8,124 bases of DNA from contig JALSNL010000398.1 of NCBI GenBank assembly GCA_026987055.1, forward strand, positions 1-8,124, in the 5' to 3' direction. Positions within the stretch are counted from its first letter, which is position 1. Each line of letters starts with the position of its first letter. The position numbers and the translations under genes were made by a program. The notes under the pieces were generated by a model. It saw only the letters and a program-made list of their open reading frames with translations. It searched no databases and was not told where the DNA came from. Of this stretch, positions 201 to 8,124 are shown piece after piece. This DNA comes from Melioribacteraceae bacterium (GTDB lineage Bacteria > Bacteroidota > Ignavibacteria > Ignavibacteriales > Melioribacteraceae).

Positions 201-1529
201 TTACTCCAAACCTTCCCACTTAAAAAGTGGTTTTTTATCTTTTAAAATAAATTTCGGTTCGGAAAAAGGAGCTAATCTTTCTAAAAAATCTATTACAGCT
301 AAAATAGGAGCTCCGTAAAAAAATTTTACATTTCTTTTAAAAGTCCATAAATGTTCCGAATAAGAATAAAGACGATATGGTGTATCACCAATATTATCCC
401 CGTCTCTATCAAAACCTTGATAATCATCAAAATAATTATTTATCCATTTATTTCTACTTGCAGTTGTACCGTTTACAGTAACTTGCTCTAAATTATCATG
501 GAAATAATTATGTTTAATTAGATTGCCTTCTTGATTACTATGAAACTGTATTGCATTACCGCAAAAAGCGATTTCATTATTTACTATTGTATTAATCTTT
601 GTGGGAACAAACGGAGAAACATCAATGTGAATGCCAACTGCGGAATAAATAAATCTATTGTTTAAAATTTGGTTAGATGATGTTTCTTTCATTCCCAAAC
701 ACATACCGCTTACTCCGTTGGATTGCATAATTGTATTACCAACCATAATTGTTTCTTCGCTGTACATTAAAAATATACCAACAGAGTTATTATAAAATTC
801 ATTATTTAATATTTTATTACTATGAGAATACATAAAATGAATGCTATATCTGTTTCCTACTCCTTTATTGTTTTCAAATAAATTTTCAGCGGAATACCAA
901 ACAACCATATCTCTAACATCGTGCCAATAACACCCTTTTACAGTATTATATTTTGAATACCAAAAATGAATTGCATCCCCTTTAAATGCCAAATTATTTT
1001 CCGTTCTAGAAGATATTTCGCAATGTAAAACTTTATTGTGGTTGGATTTTTGTACATCCAAACCAAAAAGGCATTCCTCTATTCTACAATTTTCTACAAC
1101 ATTATAGTTCCCTCTAATTGAAACTCCGCAATCAATTCTATTATGTGATTTACCGGTATTAATAATTTTTAAATTCCTTAAACGAACGCTATCCGCTTTA
1201 ATAAAGAATACCGATGTTTTGAACATACCGGAAACAACTACTTTCCCTTTTCCGTCTAAAACAATATTGTTCTTTTTAATTGTTACAGGACCGGAATAAA
1301 ACCCGGGTTTTAGTACAATTGAATCACCCGGAGAAGCATTATCAATAATAGATTGTAAGGGAATTGCATTGGCAGTATCTACTTTAAGATTGTCAAAAGA
1401 ATATAATGTGCCGGATTTATTTTGCGAATAAGACGTAACTAAAGGAAGGAAAATAAATAATATAATAATTAAAAATATATGTTTTTCTATTATATGTAAA
1501 AAATGTAATCTGTAAAAAAAGTTTTTCAA
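201..1529 (-). CDS. nosD: NosD, periplasmic beta-helix maturation protein of N2O reductase
   Basis: NosD is the exported right-handed beta-helix (CASH/carbohydrate-binding-like) protein needed, with the NosFY ABC transporter, to build the CuZ centre of NosZ. The frame carries the usual NosD signature in order (numbering from the 1571 TTG): a signal peptide or membrane helix at about 31-50 ending LVTSYSQ; a PGDSIVLKPGFYSGP segment at 81-95; repeated N-x-I/L-x-x-N beta-helix turns; RDMVVWYS (220-227); RYSIHFMYS (241-249); and the C-terminal NYFDDYQGFDRDGDNIGDTPY stretch (379-399). There is no ATG near the start. The longest frame opens at TTG 1571, inside a hairpin stem and without an upstream ribosome site. 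I prefer TTG 1529, which follows GAAAGG at an 8-nt spacing and gives about 442 residues including the signal. It lies downstream of the membrane-protein gene and is probably co-transcribed with it past the hairpin at 1551-1579. Identity is confident; the exact start is not. Confidence 0.9.
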   Translation of the reverse strand: MKNFFYRLHFLHIIEKHIFLIIILFIFLPLVTSYSQNKSGTLYSFDNLKVDTANAIPLQSIIDNASPGDSIVLKPGFYSGPVTIKKNNIVLDGKGKVVVSGMFKTSVFFIKADSVRLRNLKIINTGKSHNRIDCGVSIRGNYNVVENCRIEECLFGLDVQKSNHNKVLHCEISSRTENNLAFKGDAIHFWYSKYNTVKGCYWHDVRDMVVWYSAENLFENNKGVGNRYSIHFMYSHSNKILNNEFYNNSVGIFLMYSEETIMVGNTIMQSNGVSGMCLGMKETSSNQILNNRFIYSAVGIHIDVSPFVPTKINTIVNNEIAFCGNAIQFHSNQEGNLIKHNYFHDNLEQVTVNGTTASRNKWINNYFDDYQGFDRDGDNIGDTPYRLYSYSEHLWTFKRNVKFFYGAPILAVIDFLERLAPFSEPKFILKDKKPLFKWEGLE

Positions 1530-1550
1530 CTTTTTAACCTTTCTAAAAAG

Positions 1551-1579
1551 AATCAGTCTTAGAAAAACCAAGACTGATT
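1551..1579 (-). terminator. Hairpin between membrane protein and nosD; weak terminator or attenuator
   Basis: AATCAGTCTT (1551-1560) and AAGACTGATT (1570-1579) are perfect 10-bp complements with a 9-nt loop. On the minus strand the hairpin begins 13 nt after the stop of the membrane-protein gene and is followed by CTTTTTAG, a short T-run. This looks like a leaky terminator or an mRNA-end stabiliser just before nosD. Its stem shares the core TCAGTCT/AGACTGA with the terminator at 2871-2908. Confidence 0.55.
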
Positions 1580-1592
1580 CAAAATTTATATT

Positions 1593-2342
1593 TTACTTAG
1601 TAGCATTACTTTCACTTAATGATTTTCGTTTAAGTAAAATAGCTAATACCAAAACTACAAAAGTTACTAAAGCAACAAAAAAACCAACATCAGGGTACGA
1701 TTGAGTTGTAAATTGAGCTACTTTACCTTCACCGAAAACCGTAGGCATAAAAGCTTTAATACCTTCAAAAGCACCACCTCCGTGCAAACCCAAATGATGT
1801 CCGTACCAGTATAAATAATAAGCATAAACAATCACAAAATAAAAAGGTGTTAATGCAGGTATAAGTGCTGCCCAAGCAAATGTTTTTTTAGAAGTAAAGG
1901 CAAATAACAAGAGAAGTAATGCAAAAACGATAAACAAGTAAATAGAGTGCCTTAAAATAAAATCCAATGTTTTTAACTGACCAGGTATTTTATCAGCAGG
2001 TATTTTATCTCCGGCATAAATAGGATAAGGAACATGATCGCCTATTTCATTTATATCATTAGTGCCTTGTACAATGGGATACATACCGATAAAATGATTT
2101 ATTTTATTCATTTCCATCAAACAATCAGCCCCAACATCTTCTGCTAATTCTTCTCTTTCTTTAACACCTTTGCAGCCATTATAAACACCATCAAAAGTAA
2201 AATTAATCCTTATACCTTTGGGATACATTGCTTTGGGATATTGAATACTTTGCAAAGCAACATGCCACATTGGCGAATAGAATGTAACAAATAAAAGTAC
2301 AACACCAAGTATAGCTAAAACTTGATAAAGTCTGTTTTTCAT
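1593..2342 (-). CDS. Four-helix membrane protein of the nos cluster, in the nosB position
   Basis: A 249-residue protein with four predicted membrane helices at about 6-23, 129-149, 155-178 and 219-237. A large loop (24-128), probably periplasmic, contains C57, C74, MEM (76-78) and the motif NHFIGMYPI (82-90). After helix 3 comes a His-rich GHHLGLHGGG (181-190). The Cys, Met and His residues would suit copper or haem handling, but no CxxCH is present. Clade II nos clusters usually carry a membrane protein gene, nosB, between nosZ and nosD; here this gene lies directly before nosD. I cannot confirm sequence homology to NosB, so no symbol is given. The start is an ATG preceded by AAGGA at 5-nt spacing. 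It begins 39 nt after the small cytochrome c gene, and the two are probably one transcript. Function is inferred from context only. Confidence 0.75.
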   Translation of the reverse strand: MKNRLYQVLAILGVVLLFVTFYSPMWHVALQSIQYPKAMYPKGIRINFTFDGVYNGCKGVKEREELAEDVGADCLMEMNKINHFIGMYPIVQGTNDINEIGDHVPYPIYAGDKIPADKIPGQLKTLDFILRHSIYLFIVFALLLLLFAFTSKKTFAWAALIPALTPFYFVIVYAYYLYWYGHHLGLHGGGAFEGIKAFMPTVFGEGKVAQFTTQSYPDVGFFVALVTFVVLVLAILLKRKSLSESNATK

Positions 2343-2381: not shown

Positions 2382-2804
2382 TTATTTTACTGTAACTCCG
2401 GCTTCCTTTACCATATATGCAACTGCATCAGCTAAATCTTCATCTGAACAATCAGTACAAGAACCTCTGGCAGGCATTACACCATATTTGCCTTTTGGAA
2501 CTCCGTTTATTGCATGTTCAACAAGCACTTTCATACCTAGTTTAGCATTTTCTTCCCAACGTGCTTTATCATTTAAAGCTGCTGCTCCGGCAACACCTGT
2601 CATATGGCAGGCAACACAAACTTTATCATAAACCTTTTTACCATTTGTTAAATCAGGTGTATGAACAGCTTTTGTAACTTCTTTTTTTACGGTTTGAGCA
2701 ACTTCTTTTGTTTTATCAACAGCTTTTTTTGCATCACCGCCACAGCTTTCTATTAAAACAATTGAAAAACTAACTAACATAATTACAGCAAGAATTTTTT
2801 TCAT
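2382..2804 (-). CDS. Small lipoprotein cytochrome c (class I, c5-like), probable electron donor
   Basis: A 140-residue monohaem cytochrome c, probably donating electrons to the N2O reductase in the periplasm. A lipoprotein signal with lipobox LIESC places the lipidated cysteine at residue 21. A lysine/alanine-rich helical tether (about 24-50) leads to the haem domain. The haem motif is CVACH (63-67), and the likely sixth ligand is M110 in GVMPARG. A Cys pair follows in GSCTDCSDEDL (C116, C119), a disulfide arrangement typical of cytochrome c5-like proteins. The ATG at 2804 has GGAGA upstream at about 6 nt. The gene follows the nosZ-like pair but is separated from it by a strong terminator, so it may be expressed by read-through or from its own promoter; I saw no good promoter in 2805-2870. 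It precedes the membrane protein and nosD on the same strand. Which nosZ subunit it reduces cannot be told from sequence. Confidence 0.88.
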   Translation of the reverse strand: MKKILAVIMLVSFSIVLIESCGGDAKKAVDKTKEVAQTVKKEVTKAVHTPDLTNGKKVYDKVCVACHMTGVAGAAALNDKARWEENAKLGMKVLVEHAINGVPKGKYGVMPARGSCTDCSDEDLADAVAYMVKEAGVTVK

Positions 2805-2931: not shown

Positions 2932-5334
2932 TTATTTTTTATTTTGCATTTCCTTCATTACAGCATCTGATTTAGCCTTTAGATATTCTATAACTTTACC
3001 AACATCTTCTTTAGAAACATTTTGATTAGGCATTGCGAGTTTATATTTTTGACGCATTGCTTCAATATCGGTTTCTTTATAATGTTTTTCAGGATTTAAT
3101 ATCCAAGACTTTAACCATTTGTCATCTCTACGTTTATTAACCATCAACAAATCGGGACCGTTAAATTCGGAGCCGAATTTATGACAAGCGTTACATCCGT
3201 AATTCAAGAATTCCATTTCTCCCGGTAGTAGGTTTTTAACTTCAATAGCGGAAGGTTTGAATGCTTGCATTTGCATATCTTTTTGTACACGTTTTGAATA
3301 AGCCAATACACGATCATTTTCTGCTTTTTGATTATACTTAACAGCAAGATAACCTTGTAAAGTTCTTCCGGCAGGACTATGAATATTATCTAACAATAAC
3401 GGATACATACCGGCTTTTTCTGCTTTGAATTCAATGGTAGCGGTTTCACCTGGTCTCCATCTGTACATTGCATCATAAGAAGCAACTTCATAAACATAAT
3501 GGTCGGTTTTTGATTGACCATGATTTGTTAAATGAATTGTAACCGTTTCACCTTGGTTTACTTCTATGTTTTTAGGTGTAACTTTACCATCATTTATGGT
3601 ACCGAATACTTCAACTGTTCTACCATTGTTTTTTACTTTTTCACTACCAAGAGCAGTAGCATATTTTGATTTCTTCATAGTTACTATATCAGTACCAACA
3701 GGATATTTGTCTATAGATTTAAAATCATTCACACTAATTAAAGATGTATAATGTGGTTCGCCCATTGGAAGAGGTAAATCGTAAATAACACGCATCTTAT
3801 CACCTGCAATATCAATCAATTGATGATTTTGAGGATGTAAAGGACCAACCGGATTAAATCTATCGATAGAAAGTTTGTTTAATGCAATTAAATATTTCCC
3901 ATGAGGTTTTTTAGTATCGCCATGAGCGGAAACCAAGTGCCCAATGTTATAATGTGAACTTACATAATCCAACACTTTAAGATTTATGTAATCCCATTTT
4001 GTAACTCTGGAATCAACATAAATTGAAGTGTAAACAACACCTTTTTTAGAATCATATTGGTTATGCAAAGGTCCTAAACCAACTTCAACACTTCCGTGTA
4101 AAGCATCTTCCATTGCAATAATAGGAATACCGAATTCATCTTTGCCTTCGAACTTTTTATTCTTAATTGCATCCATAATTTTGGCAAAAGAATAAACCCA
4201 AGCATGAGAATCCAATTTACCGGCAACTATAATGTAATCTCCTGTAGGATCAACATCAACACCATGAGGTGATTTTGGTTCGGGAATTAGATATAACAAT
4301 CCATGTTTAACGGCACTTTCTATAGGAATAACCGTCATTCCATTAATTTTTTTAGTTCTGATTTTCCCTGCTTTAATAAGAGCAGCAGCCTTTTTCCAGT
4401 TAGTAACATGTAAAAAGTCAGTATCTTTAGAAGAACATCCGGCTTCAAAAGGAGGACGTCCGCTTTCAATACCACCGTAATACATTTCGGAACAGAAAGA
4501 GTTATTAAATCCCCAACCGTAACTTGCATTTTTACCGGCATCACTTAAATCTTGTGTATAAGGAGGATATTCAAATGTGAAAGAATTTTTTTCATCAATT
4601 CTTCCTTTTTCATTATTGAATTTCCAATAAGTTAAACCACCTCTCCAATATTTTTTAAAAGTAGCTTCATTTAGAGGATGATATTTTCTATCTAATGGAG
4701 CAGGATATTGTGCTGCTTCCATAATATATTCCGAATTAGGAGTAAAGAAACAACCACCGTGATCACTACGAAATATAGGATTTTGAACTATTTGTTTTAG
4801 TTCCCAGTCTTTTAGATCTATAATATAAATACGAGGGTTTGCTTTATCATTTATTGCTGCCCATTTACCATTATACAAACCGTTGGTTTCCGAATATCCA
4901 GGATGGTGAGTGTCACCCCAAAGAATTTCGGCTCCATCAATATAACCATCTTTCATCAGTTCTTTTGTTTCTTTACTATACGCATATCCGTTATAAGGTT
5001 GTCTTGTAGCAGTAGGAACATACTTTAACATTCTCATAGACGGAACAGTGTACATTGGCATATTACCTTCTTGTCCACCGGAATTGAGAGCAACATATTC
5101 ATCTTTGATTTTATCCGGTGTATATGTTTTAACTGCGGCTAATACATCTTGAGCATTAAGTCCTCTTCTTTTAACAACATCGCCAAAAGATTCGTTTCCA
5201 TAAGGAGCTCCGTCACCGGCAGCACCTGAAGAAGATTTTTTGTTTCCACCACAACTTACAATTAATATAGTAGAGAAAGCAAAAATTGCAGCTAATTTTA
5301 ATGTATTCATATAGAATTTATTTAACCTTTTCAT
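2932..5334 (-). CDS. nosZ: NosZ-family N2O reductase subunit with CuZ site and fused cytochrome c, CuA site lost
   Basis: An 800-residue clade II-type NosZ homologue and probable catalytic subunit, reducing N2O to N2 at CuZ in the periplasm. It has a lipoprotein signal (lipobox IVSC, lipidated C28) and no twin-arginine. All seven CuZ histidines are identifiable: H143/H144 (GDTHHP), H192 (DHGG), H309 (FLHVTNW), H357 (SPHGVD), H424 (GLGPLH) and H466 (NIGHL). The conserved Lys near the active site is K446 (VTKW). The presumed calcium loop EMYYGGIESGRPPFEAG (283-299) is present. The C-terminal cupredoxin domain (about 572-667) keeps its fold pattern, but the CuA motif is gone: aligned with its neighbour, the two Cys, the His and the Met are replaced by L648, H652, G656 and L659. 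Only H612 may remain. A monohaem cytochrome c domain follows (about 700-790; CNACH 714-718, probable ligand M768), as in Wolinella-type cNosZ. The start ATG overlaps the upstream stop (TAATG), with AGGAGG at 5341-5346. The frame is long and intact, so decay is unlikely. Confidence 0.92.
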   Translation of the reverse strand: MKRLNKFYMNTLKLAAIFAFSTILIVSCGGNKKSSSGAAGDGAPYGNESFGDVVKRRGLNAQDVLAAVKTYTPDKIKDEYVALNSGGQEGNMPMYTVPSMRMLKYVPTATRQPYNGYAYSKETKELMKDGYIDGAEILWGDTHHPGYSETNGLYNGKWAAINDKANPRIYIIDLKDWELKQIVQNPIFRSDHGGCFFTPNSEYIMEAAQYPAPLDRKYHPLNEATFKKYWRGGLTYWKFNNEKGRIDEKNSFTFEYPPYTQDLSDAGKNASYGWGFNNSFCSEMYYGGIESGRPPFEAGCSSKDTDFLHVTNWKKAAALIKAGKIRTKKINGMTVIPIESAVKHGLLYLIPEPKSPHGVDVDPTGDYIIVAGKLDSHAWVYSFAKIMDAIKNKKFEGKDEFGIPIIAMEDALHGSVEVGLGPLHNQYDSKKGVVYTSIYVDSRVTKWDYINLKVLDYVSSHYNIGHLVSAHGDTKKPHGKYLIALNKLSIDRFNPVGPLHPQNHQLIDIAGDKMRVIYDLPLPMGEPHYTSLISVNDFKSIDKYPVGTDIVTMKKSKYATALGSEKVKNNGRTVEVFGTINDGKVTPKNIEVNQGETVTIHLTNHGQSKTDHYVYEVASYDAMYRWRPGETATIEFKAEKAGMYPLLLDNIHSPAGRTLQGYLAVKYNQKAENDRVLAYSKRVQKDMQMQAFKPSAIEVKNLLPGEMEFLNYGCNACHKFGSEFNGPDLLMVNKRRDDKWLKSWILNPEKHYKETDIEAMRQKYKLAMPNQNVSKEDVGKVIEYLKAKSDAVMKEMQNKK

Positions 5335-7571
5335 TATTTGCCTCCTTCTAATTTCTCTTCTAACAGTGTCTTGGCACGTAAACCAACATCGGCTGTTTTA
5401 ACTTGATATTGCCAATATTGTTCTGCCCATAAGAAAGCATCTTTCCATTTACCTTCTTTCGCATACTTTTCATAATTTGCTTTAGCAAATTTACCTTTTT
5501 CCAATTGATCAAAAGCATCTTCTACAAGAGCTTTAACATAAGGATATTTAGCATAATCATTTTCTTTCAAGAATTTAACAACGCCACCGATAATATCGCC
5601 GGTTTGTTTAATTACTTCAACTTTCTTTTCGTAATTTTTCTTGTATTGTGCTAATTCTTCTTTTGTTAAAGCAACAACTTTTTCAGCTTTTCCTTTCCAG
5701 TTTTTAGGTTTAACAAGAAGAATACCTTCCATTTCAAGGTGAAGTGCCGAACAGAATTCAGTACAATAATATGGGAAAACACCTGAACGATCTGCTGTAA
5801 ATGTTAGTGAAGCGGTTTTACCAGGTTCAAAACTACCATGTTTACCATAAGTATCTATCGTAAACCCGTGAGTTTCATCTTCGGCACGTTCAAGATTTGT
5901 TAAGTGAAATGTTACAACATCACCTTCGTTAACATTAACAATTTCCGGTGTAATGTGTGAACGTATTAAAGTACCGAAAACATGGACACGATTTCCTTGT
6001 CGTTCAATTTTTTCTTGACCGGCAACTGTTTTAAAGTTTGAAATTTCACCTGTTCTGGTATTTGTTCCAAGTTTGTAACGAATTATAGGTTTAATTGTTG
6101 TTCTTAAAACAGATACCGAACCATAAATATTTGCTTGCGGTAAACTCATCGTATAAAGGTCTTTCATGTTATCCGATGAAATATCAATCAAATGTTGGAA
6201 ACTTGGTCTTACCGGTCCAACATTAGGATAATTTTCATACAAACCTTCTTTATCAACAGCTACTAAATAATTTGAATGTGGTGAAGCAGACATTCCTTGT
6301 GGTGTCATCAACATACTGGGTTTAAATGTTAAAGCAACTTCACCTTCTTTTTTTAATGTGTTGTAATTAAATCTTACAATTTTTTTACCACCATGATCGG
6401 AAGCATAAGTAACACCGTCTCTATAATCAAAAGCTATGTCACAAATCATTCCGCCTAAATCAATCTTACCTTTAAGAACACCGGCAGCATCAATTGCAGG
6501 AACACCGGCAACGTTTTTAGAAGTTTTACTTAGTGCGGCAGCAACTTTGTCAAAATCAAAAACCATAACTTCTTTACCGGTTACAATAAAATATTTACCG
6601 TCAGGGGTTACTTTTACTCTTCTAGCCATTCCCGGTAATTCAATAATAGCAACAGCATTAGCAGCAACTCCGTCTTTTAACGAAATAACATTTGCTTCGT
6701 TAACCGTTGTAGAAGCTTTACCTTCCAATTTGGAATAGTCAATTACATAAACGTAATTTTTTCCATCTTTGGAAGCTAAACCAACAACAAAATTTTTACT
6801 TCCTTTTCTACCTGTATCAAAATAATCTAATGAAAACGGAGGTAGTTCCAAAGTAAAAGATTTTTCTTTAAGCATACGACCAATGTGATGACCGGATTTT
6901 GTAGCACCTTTAGGATCTTCAAATTTCCAGAAAGTTACACCTGATTTAAATTGAGAATCAAAATTATCAGTACTGGCAACTTTATTATCCCATGGAGCAG
7001 GATATTGACTTGTTTGAATAACATATTCCGTATTTTCAGTAACAGCAACACCAGGATAGCAATTAGCAAATAACGGATTTGTTAAAACTTGTTTGGTTTC
7101 AAAATCATCTAAACCAAGTAATGCGATTCTTGAATTTGCTCCATCGGAATAGAATAAGTATTTTCCGTTATATTCTCCGTTTGTTTCCGATAACGCAGGA
7201 TATCTCATATCGCCGTAATTATAAATACGGTCATCAAGAGAACCTTTTTTAAGCATTAGTGAACTTTCATCATCATAACCATAACCTTGCCATGGTTCCG
7301 GTGAAAAAACACCAACGTATTTGTAAATACGCATTGAAGGTAAACCGTAAACAATCATTGTTCCGGAATTACCTGTCCCGACAAATGCAAAATATTCGTC
7401 ACGTCCACCACGCGGCATAAATGTTTTAACAGCTGCTAAAACATCATCGTCGTTTAGGTTACGAGCTTTTTTTACATCGTCAAGAGTTTGTTGAGCAAAC
7501 ATTTGTCCCAACATAGCAAACATAACTAAAATTGCTATGTGGTACATGGTACGCTTAGCTTTTAGTATCAT
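5334..7571 (-). CDS. NosZ paralogue with intact CuA site and no CuZ ligands; probable electron-transfer subunit
   Basis: A 745-residue NosZ-family protein with a Sec signal peptide (about 1-26, ending MLGQMFA). The propeller half aligns with the next gene throughout (e.g. LAAVKTFMP, LSETNGEYNGKY, SQYPAPWD), but every CuZ ligand is changed: HH to R123/Y124, then Y172, Y275, R317, D378 (small gap) and M420. The active-site Lys becomes R400, and about 20 residues holding the calcium loop are missing between 258 and 270. The C-terminal cupredoxin domain has a complete CuA site: H568, C603, E605 (backbone ligand position), C607, H611 and M614 in YYCTEFCSALHLEM. The H568-C603 spacing of 35 equals H583-C618 of Pseudomonas stutzeri NosZ. 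A charged, helical tail (about 622-745) without Cys follows. It is first in the operon and probably pairs with the CuZ subunit. The ATG at 7571 has GGGAGG only 1 nt upstream; M9 is an alternative, but M1 supplies the KAKR n-region. Confidence 0.9.
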   Translation of the reverse strand: MILKAKRTMYHIAILVMFAMLGQMFAQQTLDDVKKARNLNDDDVLAAVKTFMPRGGRDEYFAFVGTGNSGTMIVYGLPSMRIYKYVGVFSPEPWQGYGYDDESSLMLKKGSLDDRIYNYGDMRYPALSETNGEYNGKYLFYSDGANSRIALLGLDDFETKQVLTNPLFANCYPGVAVTENTEYVIQTSQYPAPWDNKVASTDNFDSQFKSGVTFWKFEDPKGATKSGHHIGRMLKEKSFTLELPPFSLDYFDTGRKGSKNFVVGLASKDGKNYVYVIDYSKLEGKASTTVNEANVISLKDGVAANAVAIIELPGMARRVKVTPDGKYFIVTGKEVMVFDFDKVAAALSKTSKNVAGVPAIDAAGVLKGKIDLGGMICDIAFDYRDGVTYASDHGGKKIVRFNYNTLKKEGEVALTFKPSMLMTPQGMSASPHSNYLVAVDKEGLYENYPNVGPVRPSFQHLIDISSDNMKDLYTMSLPQANIYGSVSVLRTTIKPIIRYKLGTNTRTGEISNFKTVAGQEKIERQGNRVHVFGTLIRSHITPEIVNVNEGDVVTFHLTNLERAEDETHGFTIDTYGKHGSFEPGKTASLTFTADRSGVFPYYCTEFCSALHLEMEGILLVKPKNWKGKAEKVVALTKEELAQYKKNYEKKVEVIKQTGDIIGGVVKFLKENDYAKYPYVKALVEDAFDQLEKGKFAKANYEKYAKEGKWKDAFLWAEQYWQYQVKTADVGLRAKTLLEEKLEGGK
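5341..5346 (-). promoter_or_regulatory. Ribosome binding site of the CuZ subunit inside the CuA-subunit gene
   Basis: On the minus strand AGGAGG lies within the last codons (Glu-Gly-Gly-Lys) of the CuA-type gene, 6 nt before the ATG at 5334-5332. Stop and start overlap as TAATG. Ribosomes ending on the first gene can restart on the second, which would couple production of the two subunits. Confidence 0.75.
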
Positions 7572-7674: not shown

Positions 7675-7784
7675 AAATTTTTGATATTACAAGTAATAAT
7701 TTAGAAAAATAAAAAACTACTAACAAGAATTATTAATCCGATTATATCTTGCCAATTAATTATTTTTTAGTTAACTTATTTCTT

Positions 7785-8124
7785 ATGAATTTATTTCGCA
7801 AAATTACAATTGTTTTTCTTAGTTTATCTTTTTTGATTATAACCAATCAAAATACTATTGGTTATTTATATTTTAAGATAAATCAAAATTATATTGCTAA
7901 AAATTTATGCGTTCAAAAAGATAAAGAAGAAAATTTATGTTTAGGTAATTGTTATTTGAAAGCAATTCAAAAAAGATTAGAAAAAAATTCGGCAGATTCA
8001 GATAGTAAAAACGTACCTGTTAAATATAACAGTTCCAATCAAATTCAAGACTTTATAACTACCAATAAATTCACTTTATATAAAAAAGAAAGTATATCAA
8101 TTTTTGCATTTAATAAATCAAATC
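7785..8124 (+). CDS. Small exported Cys-motif protein, cut by the right edge
   Basis: The frame opens at ATG 7785 and stays open for 113 codons to the window end. Residues 1-29 form a hydrophobic signal or anchor (KITIVFLSLSFLIIT). Next comes YFKINQNYIAKNLC, then LCLGNCYLK, giving three cysteines at 42, 52 and 56 (C-x9-C-x3-C), followed by a polar lysine/asparagine-rich stretch. I recall this 'Q-x-YIAKNLC...C-x-G-x-C-x-L' pattern from many short Bacteroidota hypothetical proteins, often near metal-related or TonB-receptor genes. The Cys set suggests metal binding, perhaps copper, but that is inference. It is divergent from the nosZ-like pair across 213 nt. No clear Shine-Dalgarno sequence precedes the ATG, which is common in this phylum. 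The C-terminus is outside the window. Confidence 0.7.
   Translation, partial: MNLFRKITIVFLSLSFLIITNQNTIGYLYFKINQNYIAKNLCVQKDKEENLCLGNCYLKAIQKRLEKNSADSDSKNVPVKYNSSNQIQDFITTNKFTLYKKESISIFAFNKSN

What the first reader, a model, noticed from the sequence alone, without database searches (positions are those of the whole stretch)
2932..7571. Split nitrous oxide reductase: tandem NosZ paralogues with complementary copper sites
Seen: two adjacent, overlapping, intact genes are NosZ paralogues end to end. The 745-residue one keeps all CuA ligands and none of the seven CuZ histidines. The 800-residue one keeps all seven CuZ histidines and at most one CuA ligand. Known: NosZ is a head-to-tail homodimer in which CuA of one subunit delivers electrons to CuZ of the other. 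Inference: after duplication each copy lost one half, giving an obligate heterodimer with one composite active site and two silent ones. I know of no described N2O reductase of this type.
Basis: partly seen in the sequence, partly recalled or inferred. Interest (0 to 1): 0.95.

Follow-up and report, generated by a model that had tools for sequence, protein, structure and literature searches.

The report
Nitrous oxide reductase split in two
In this bacterium the enzyme family that destroys the greenhouse gas nitrous oxide is encoded as two neighbouring genes, one keeping only the copper site that delivers electrons and the other only the copper site where the gas is reduced, so the two proteins are predicted to work only as a mixed pair, a form of the enzyme that none of our paper searches turned up.

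Summary
A (5334-7571, 745 aa) and B (2932-5334, 800 aa) are NosZ paralogues, 32% identical. Of 121 A-type proteins, 120 keep all five CuA side-chain ligands and one keeps four; none keeps more than two of seven CuZ histidines. All 121 B-type proteins keep seven CuZ histidines and at most one CuA ligand. In named genomes, 46 of 46 A-type loci are followed by B on the same strand. Conservation is reciprocal: A keeps 26 of 28 canonical-invariant CuA-domain columns but 37 of 89 propeller columns; B keeps 10 of 28 and 78 of 89. B carries a C-terminal haem c; A keeps a helical tail; Campylobacter showae NosZ has CuZ, CuA, tail and haem in one chain. Best reading: an obligate A:B heterodimer with one working CuA-CuZ site, probably fed by haem c. 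The heterodimer is inferred; no complex was modelled or measured. Three of 45 pair-bearing genomes also hold a canonical NosZ. Ten searches of the held papers found no split NosZ. New variant of a known enzyme.

The parts
5334..7571 (-). A, CuA-only NosZ paralogue (745 aa): signal-like N-terminus (not tested with a tool), propeller without CuZ ligands, intact CuA cupredoxin domain, helical tail
   Evidence: ORF; NCBIfam TIGR04246 463.8 bits, below its 625 cut-off; solved NosZ chains E 2e-50; ligand columns
5709..5996 (-). A residues 526-621, working CuA domain; ligands H568, C603, C607, H611, M614 (codons within 5730-5870)
   Evidence: ligand columns; 26 of 28 canonical-invariant columns kept
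6123..7205 (-). A's empty CuZ site: R123, Y124, Y172, R317, D378, M420 and Y483 in place of the seven histidines
   Evidence: in 121 A proteins D378 121, Y483 121, R123 119
5337..5705 (-). A residues 623-745, helical C-terminal tail shared with canonical proteobacterial and Campylobacter NosZ, absent from B
   Evidence: tail alignment; helices in the model
2932..5334 (-). B, CuZ-only NosZ paralogue (800 aa) with C-terminal haem c; one-base overlap with A
   Evidence: ORF; NCBIfam TIGR04246 690.8 bits, above its 625 cut-off; solved NosZ chains E 3.6e-60
3751..4908 (-). B residues 143-528 spanning the seven CuZ histidines H143, H144, H192, H357, H424, H466, H528
   Evidence: 121 of 121 B proteins keep all seven
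3337..3624 (-). B residues 571-666, cupredoxin domain that has lost CuA
   Evidence: 10 of 28 canonical-invariant columns kept
2938..3225 (-). B residues 704-799, haem c domain; CNACH motif at 3181-3195
   Evidence: Pfam Cytochrom_C 711-787; 40% identical over 84 aa to the haem domain of Campylobacter showae NosZ
2382..2804 (-). small cytochrome c (140 aa), probable electron donor; a homologue is fused to B in 10 of 46 loci
   Evidence: Pfam Cytochrome_CBB3 E 9.6e-15
1593..2342 (-). membrane-type protein in the NosB position; no Pfam or NCBIfam match; homologues also follow canonical nosZ
201..1571 (-). NosD maturation protein
   Evidence: TIGR04247 366.4 bits, above its 300 cut-off

Best explanation
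The window encodes two NosZ-derived proteins with complementary copper ligands, A (CuA only) and B (CuZ only, plus haem c), which are predicted to work as an obligate heterodimer in which A's CuA would pass electrons to B's CuZ, where N2O would be reduced. Shown: the ligand split, its fixation in the family, the reciprocal conservation of the two halves, the constant A-B gene pairing, the haem domain on B, and NosD alongside. Inferred from the solved homodimer, where CuA of one subunit sits against CuZ of the other: A and B pair head to tail, giving one working composite site (A CuA, B CuZ) and one silent one (B empty CuA, A empty CuZ). Also inferred: electrons run from NosGH-type 4Fe-4S proteins through the small cytochrome c and B's haem c to CuA of A, and then to CuZ of B. 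Least certain is the haem step: B's haem domain follows B's dead CuA domain, which in the canonical layout lies on the silent side, so it would have to reach across.
For: Ligands: 121 A and 121 B proteins. Genome loci: 47 of 47 A rows that span the CuA loop have 5 of 5 ligands; 42 of 42 B rows that span all CuZ positions have 7 of 7; 40 of 40 B rows that span the CuA loop have none (counts include the window's own). Pairing: 46 of 46 loci A then B on the same strand, B's first in-frame Met -50 to +100 nt from A's stop. Both metal-free halves are kept: 119 A proteins with a start Met are 721 aa or longer and the 37 B frames not cut by a contig end are 796 aa or longer, as a dimer scaffold would require. 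Canonical-invariant columns: A keeps 26 of 28 CuA-domain and 37 of 89 propeller; B 10 of 28 and 78 of 89 (Fisher p 8e-7 and 2e-7). A and B distances co-vary over 42 pairs, Mantel r 0.889, 0 of 2000 permutations as high (shared descent also gives this). No one-sided chain was met among 100 single-chain loci, 87 distinct. In 42 of 45 pair genomes no NosZ other than A or B type was found at E 1e-20. In L034, one of the two closest loci: A, B, cytochrome c, NosB position, NosD, two 4Fe-4S proteins, ABC ATPase, NosL-like (below its cut-off), ABC permease, close to Wolinella nosZBDGC1C2HFYL (PMC8139620, passages). Dimer geometry: PMC11573801 (passages). A homologue of the small cytochrome c is fused to B in 10 loci; the 16 loci with a separate copy are disjoint from them.
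Against: No complex was predicted or measured. The monomer models are middling (A mean pLDDT 64.4, with the CuA region mostly under 50; B 71.2). The haem sits on the chain whose CuA domain is dead. A falls below the NosZ equivalog cut-off (463.8 against 625). 3 of 45 pair genomes also hold a canonical NosZ. The window's assembly is 68.6% complete, so a further NosZ there is not excluded. The 46 named loci are all from metagenome-assembled genomes, and no activity data were found.
Confidence: 0.83

Rival explanations
1. B is a self-sufficient reductase in which the fused haem c has replaced CuA and feeds CuZ directly; A is an accessory protein such as a copper chaperone or an assembly scaffold.
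For: B has all CuZ ligands and its own haem c motif in 121 of 121 (one CxxCH in 101, two in 20); A alone cannot bind CuZ.
Against: A's CuA domain is its best-kept part (mean pairwise identity 0.906, against 0.651 in the propeller), and A accompanies B in 46 of 46 loci. In Campylobacter showae NosZ the homologous haem domain coexists with an intact CuA.
Confidence: 0.09
2. A and B each form homodimers; A is a separate CuA electron carrier that docks on a B homodimer.
For: Each chain keeps both NosZ domains; nothing here excludes A2 and B2.
Against: A pure carrier would not need a 480-residue propeller, yet the 119 A proteins with a start Met are 721 aa or longer. The canonical dimer already places CuA of one chain on CuZ of the other (PMC11573801, passages).
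Confidence: 0.05
3. The pair no longer reduces N2O but some other small molecule, or acts as a copper or redox sensor.
For: No activity data; long stems of A and B in the tree (1.28 and 1.14 changes per column).
Against: The CuZ cage and 78 of 89 canonical-invariant propeller columns are kept in B, and the genes lie in a nos maturation cluster.
Confidence: 0.03

Closest known systems
Clade II Sec-dependent NosZ (NCBIfam TIGR04246)
   Same: Whole-length homology of A and B, CuZ cage in B, CuA in A, nos maturation genes alongside
   Different: CuA and CuZ on one chain there; on two different chains here
Cytochrome c NosZ (cNosZ) of Wolinella and Campylobacter
   Same: Haem c fused to a NosZ chain, NosB-position gene, NosGH-type 4Fe-4S proteins in the cluster (PMC8139620, passages); haem domain 40% identical to that of C. 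showae
   Different: C. showae NosZ has CuZ, CuA, helical tail and haem in one chain; here CuA and tail are on A, CuZ and haem on B
Clade III lactonase-type NosZ (NCBIfam NF052460; NosZ-like proteins with a lactonase propeller in PMC11033732, passages)
   Same: Propeller plus cupredoxin plan
   Different: Different propeller family; A and B score 76.7 and 114.3 bits against a 700 cut-off
DPANN NosZ-like proteins (PMC10936187, passages)
   Same: CuA site kept, CuZ absent; in two MAGs a neighbouring protein with five conserved histidines was suggested to act like CuZ
   Different: The DPANN proteins are shorter and branch between Cox2 and clade II NosZ, the partner is short and seen in 2 MAGs only, and complementation without the partner gave no significant activity; here both chains are full-length NosZ and together hold all ligands
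Heterodimeric ABC exporters with one degenerate ATP site (recalled, analogy only)
   Same: A homodimer with two composite sites turned into a heterodimer with one working and one dead site
   Different: Unrelated proteins; no redox chemistry

Membership tests
Clade II NosZ (TIGR04246) | Whole-protein score above the curated equivalog cut-off of 625 | tested here: inconclusive
   B 690.8 passes, A 463.8 does not
Clade II NosZ (TIGR04246) | Seven CuZ histidines and five CuA side-chain ligands on the same chain | tested here: not met
   Met only by the pair together: A745 0 of 7 and 5 of 5, B800 7 of 7 and 0 of 5
Clade II NosZ (TIGR04246) | Encoded with nos maturation genes | tested here: met
   NosD in the window; in L034 also ABC ATPase and permease, 4Fe-4S proteins and a NosL-like protein below its cut-off (22.5 against 24 bits)
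Clade II NosZ (TIGR04246) | Head-to-tail homodimer with CuA of one chain against CuZ of the other | not testable with these tools
   No complex prediction available; only monomer models
cNosZ | Haem c domain at the C-terminus of a chain that carries CuA | tested here: not met
   Haem c is on B, which lacks CuA; A has no CxxCH in 121 of 121
Clade III lactonase-type NosZ (NF052460) | Score above the curated cut-off of 700 | tested here: not met
   A 76.7, B 114.3
DPANN NosZ-like | Sequence membership in that clade | not tested
   Sequences not fetched; known here only from passages of PMC10936187

The most novel reading that the evidence does not exclude
A one-way wired N2O reductase: an obligate heterodimer with a single active site, haem c and CuZ on one chain and CuA on the other, in which evolution has dissected the homodimer and so gives natural genetic proof that only inter-subunit CuA-to-CuZ transfer is needed; the metal-free halves have become scaffold, and A's former CuZ cage is refilled by a fixed Arg, Asp and Tyr set.
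Probability: 0.72. Interest if true: 0.9.

Novelty: new variant of a known kind. Interest (0 to 1): 0.87.

Why it matters
NosZ is called the only known enzyme that reduces N2O to N2 (PMC13122619, abstract in the listing), and the solved enzyme is described as a head-to-tail homodimer with both copper sites on each chain (PMC11573801, passages). A natural split would show that one composite site per dimer is enough, would let CuA and CuZ be assembled, changed and studied separately, and would give a role to proteins that some sources name 'cytochrome C' or 'hypothetical protein' in Bacteroidota MAGs. Surveys that demand both motifs on one protein would miss or misread this lineage, which is present in Bacteroidales, Flavobacteriales, Saprospiraceae and Melioribacteraceae MAGs.

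Full report
What is there. The window is a whole 8124-base contig of a draft genome of 2.35 Mb in 458 contigs, 68.6% complete. On the minus strand lie A (5334-7571), B (2932-5334), a cytochrome c (2382-2804), a membrane-type protein (1593-2342) and NosD (201-1571). A's stop codon and B's start codon share one base. A and B are 32% identical over 653 aligned positions, and both match solved nitrous oxide reductases. NCBIfam's Sec-dependent NosZ model accepts B (690.8 bits) but not A (463.8; cut-off 625).

The ligand split. Using columns that are invariant in 29 canonical Bacteroidota NosZ (selected for having both motifs), A745 has all five CuA side-chain ligands and none of the seven CuZ histidines; B800 has all seven CuZ histidines and none of the five CuA ligands. 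In A745 plus its 120 best homologues, 120 keep all five CuA ligands and one keeps four; 92 keep no CuZ histidine, 28 keep one and one keeps two. In B800 plus its 120 best homologues all 121 keep seven CuZ histidines; 116 keep no CuA ligand and 5 keep one. The homologue lists are the best 120 of 5804 and of 7170 hits. In a re-test without the motif filter, 100 of 100 single-chain NosZ loci fetched from the phylum, order and class samples had both motifs (the CuZ test there is only D-x-H-H); these are 87 distinct proteins, because the samples overlap.

Reciprocal conservation. Of 117 columns at least 97% invariant in 63 canonical NosZ, 89 lie in the propeller and 28 in the CuA domain. A keeps 37 and 26 of them, B keeps 78 and 10 (Fisher p 8e-7 and 2e-7). 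Mean pairwise identity is 0.651 (propeller) and 0.906 (CuA domain) within A, 0.756 and 0.673 within B, 0.782 and 0.808 in the 34 NosZ of the second control set (mostly proteobacterial), and 0.577 and 0.634 in the 29 Bacteroidota NosZ. Each chain is therefore constrained where it still carries metal and relaxed where it does not. Against simple decay, three of A's former CuZ positions are nearly fixed: D378 121 of 121, Y483 121 of 121, R123 119 of 121; in the genome loci R123 is Arg in 43 of 45 rows that span it and Trp in 2. This suggests a structural filling of the empty cage (inference). Nine canonical-invariant propeller columns are kept by A and lost by B, and I have no explanation for them.

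The pair is constant. A scan of one genome per species with the A alignment returned the best 80 of 562 relatives. The 46 loci at 63% identity or more are A-type; in all 46 a B-type frame follows on the same strand, its first in-frame Met lying -50 to +100 nt from A's stop. Five of the 46 B frames are cut by contig ends before the later CuZ positions (four show the first three histidines, one is too short to tell); one A (L073) is broken into two frames and one (L077) holds a 100-N assembly gap. The other 34 loci (about 42-45% identity) are single-chain NosZ with both motifs. The 46 loci lie in 45 genomes; a search that scored all candidates found a further NosZ with both motifs in 3 of 45, all Flavobacteriaceae or Flavobacteriia MAGs. 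Samples of whole orders and classes: in 393 genomes of the order of G400, 10 have B, 5 of them not met before, and all 10 have A (for G700 on another contig; for G487 only A's C-terminal part before the contig end). In 395 genomes of the order of G403, 2 have B, one not met before, both with A. In 294 genomes of the class of G395, 2 have A, both already known to have B. In 395 genomes of the window's phylum only the window's own has a close A; the next match is 34% identical. A and B distances agree over 42 pairs (Mantel r 0.889, 0 of 2000 permutations as high; the same nearest neighbour in 28 of 42), as expected for joint inheritance; this does not show contact.

Modules and neighbours. A ends in a helical tail that aligns with the tail of proteobacterial and Campylobacter NosZ; B lacks it and ends in a haem c domain, 40% identical over 84 residues to the haem domain of Campylobacter showae NosZ, which has CuZ, CuA, tail and haem in one chain. 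The simplest history is a cNosZ-like ancestor whose modules were divided between two copies; a haem domain captured later from a neighbouring cytochrome gene is not excluded, since small cytochrome c genes with weak similarity to B also flank canonical Bacteroidota nosZ. In 10 of 46 loci B carries a second haem domain homologous to the window's small cytochrome c (42-63% identical); in 16 loci a separate copy follows B, and the two sets are disjoint; about 10 loci show neither and about 10 are cut. This fusion pattern points to the small cytochrome c as B's electron donor. In L034, one of the two closest loci, the order is A, B, cytochrome c, NosB-position protein, NosD, a Tat-type 4Fe-4S protein, a second 4Fe-4S protein, an ABC ATPase, a NosL-like protein (22.5 bits, cut-off 24) and an ABC permease, close to the Wolinella operon nosZBDGC1C2HFYL described in PMC8139620 (passages).

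Mechanism. In solved NosZ the CuA domain of one chain sits against the CuZ propeller of the other, forming a combined active site (PMC11573801, passages). With A lacking CuZ and B lacking CuA, only an A:B pair can form such a site, and it forms one instead of two. That both metal-free halves are retained (119 A proteins of 721 aa or more; 37 uncut B frames of 796 aa or more) argues that they are needed as a dimer scaffold. Electron entry through NosGH-type proteins, the small cytochrome c and B's haem c is inferred; B's haem follows B's dead CuA domain, so its reach to A's CuA is the least certain step. No complex was modelled; the monomer models are middling (mean pLDDT 64.4 and 71.2), and NosZ structures rank first for both.

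Origin. In a 40-row tree A and B are each one clade (100/100) and lie with proteobacterial and Campylobacter NosZ, apart from the 7 canonical Bacteroidota NosZ used (100/100); A and B as sisters is neither shown nor rejected (p-AU 0.258). In a 152-row quick tree A and B are again clades (100) with long stems, but the fork that sets canonical Bacteroidota NosZ apart is weak (45) and the C. showae row falls beside them there, so the place of the ancestor is open.

Novelty. The nearest report met is the CuA-only NosZ-like protein of DPANN archaea, two of whose MAGs carry a neighbouring five-histidine protein (PMC10936187, passages). PMC11096178 states that clade I and II NosZ share complete conservation of both sites in its curated set (passages). 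Ten searches of the held papers listed no paper on a split or heterodimeric NosZ. I rate it a new variant of a known enzyme, strongly supported in sequence and untested in the laboratory.

Noticed in passing
L045 and L054 (both genome G407); G435 contigs C151 and C170 (C170 = L074); G429 contigs C49 (L068) and C120 (L117): Three of 45 genomes carry a second pair or a second B: G407 two pairs with one and two haems on B, G435 two pairs, G429 a second B at a contig start so that its A is unseen.
   Followed up: partly
L113, L114, L115: Three Flavobacteriaceae or Flavobacteriia MAGs with the pair also hold a canonical NosZ; in two of them (L113, L114) a small cytochrome c gene lies just before it.
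   Followed up: partly
window 1593-2342: The protein in the NosB position matches no Pfam or NCBIfam model, although homologues follow both the pair and canonical nosZ in many loci.
   Followed up: partly
window 7749-8123 (+): Open frame running off the contig, divergent from the A-B operon, with a signal-like start and a CxxxC pair; no family match.
   Followed up: no
A residues 123, 378, 483 (codons between 7205 and 6123): Arg, Asp and Tyr are nearly fixed at three former CuZ ligand positions of A, perhaps a salt bridge filling the empty cage.
   Followed up: no
B residue 28 (window 5253-5251): A cysteine at the end of the signal region is present in 121 of 121 B proteins and has no counterpart in A, suggesting that B is a lipoprotein and A is held at the membrane by B.
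   Followed up: partly
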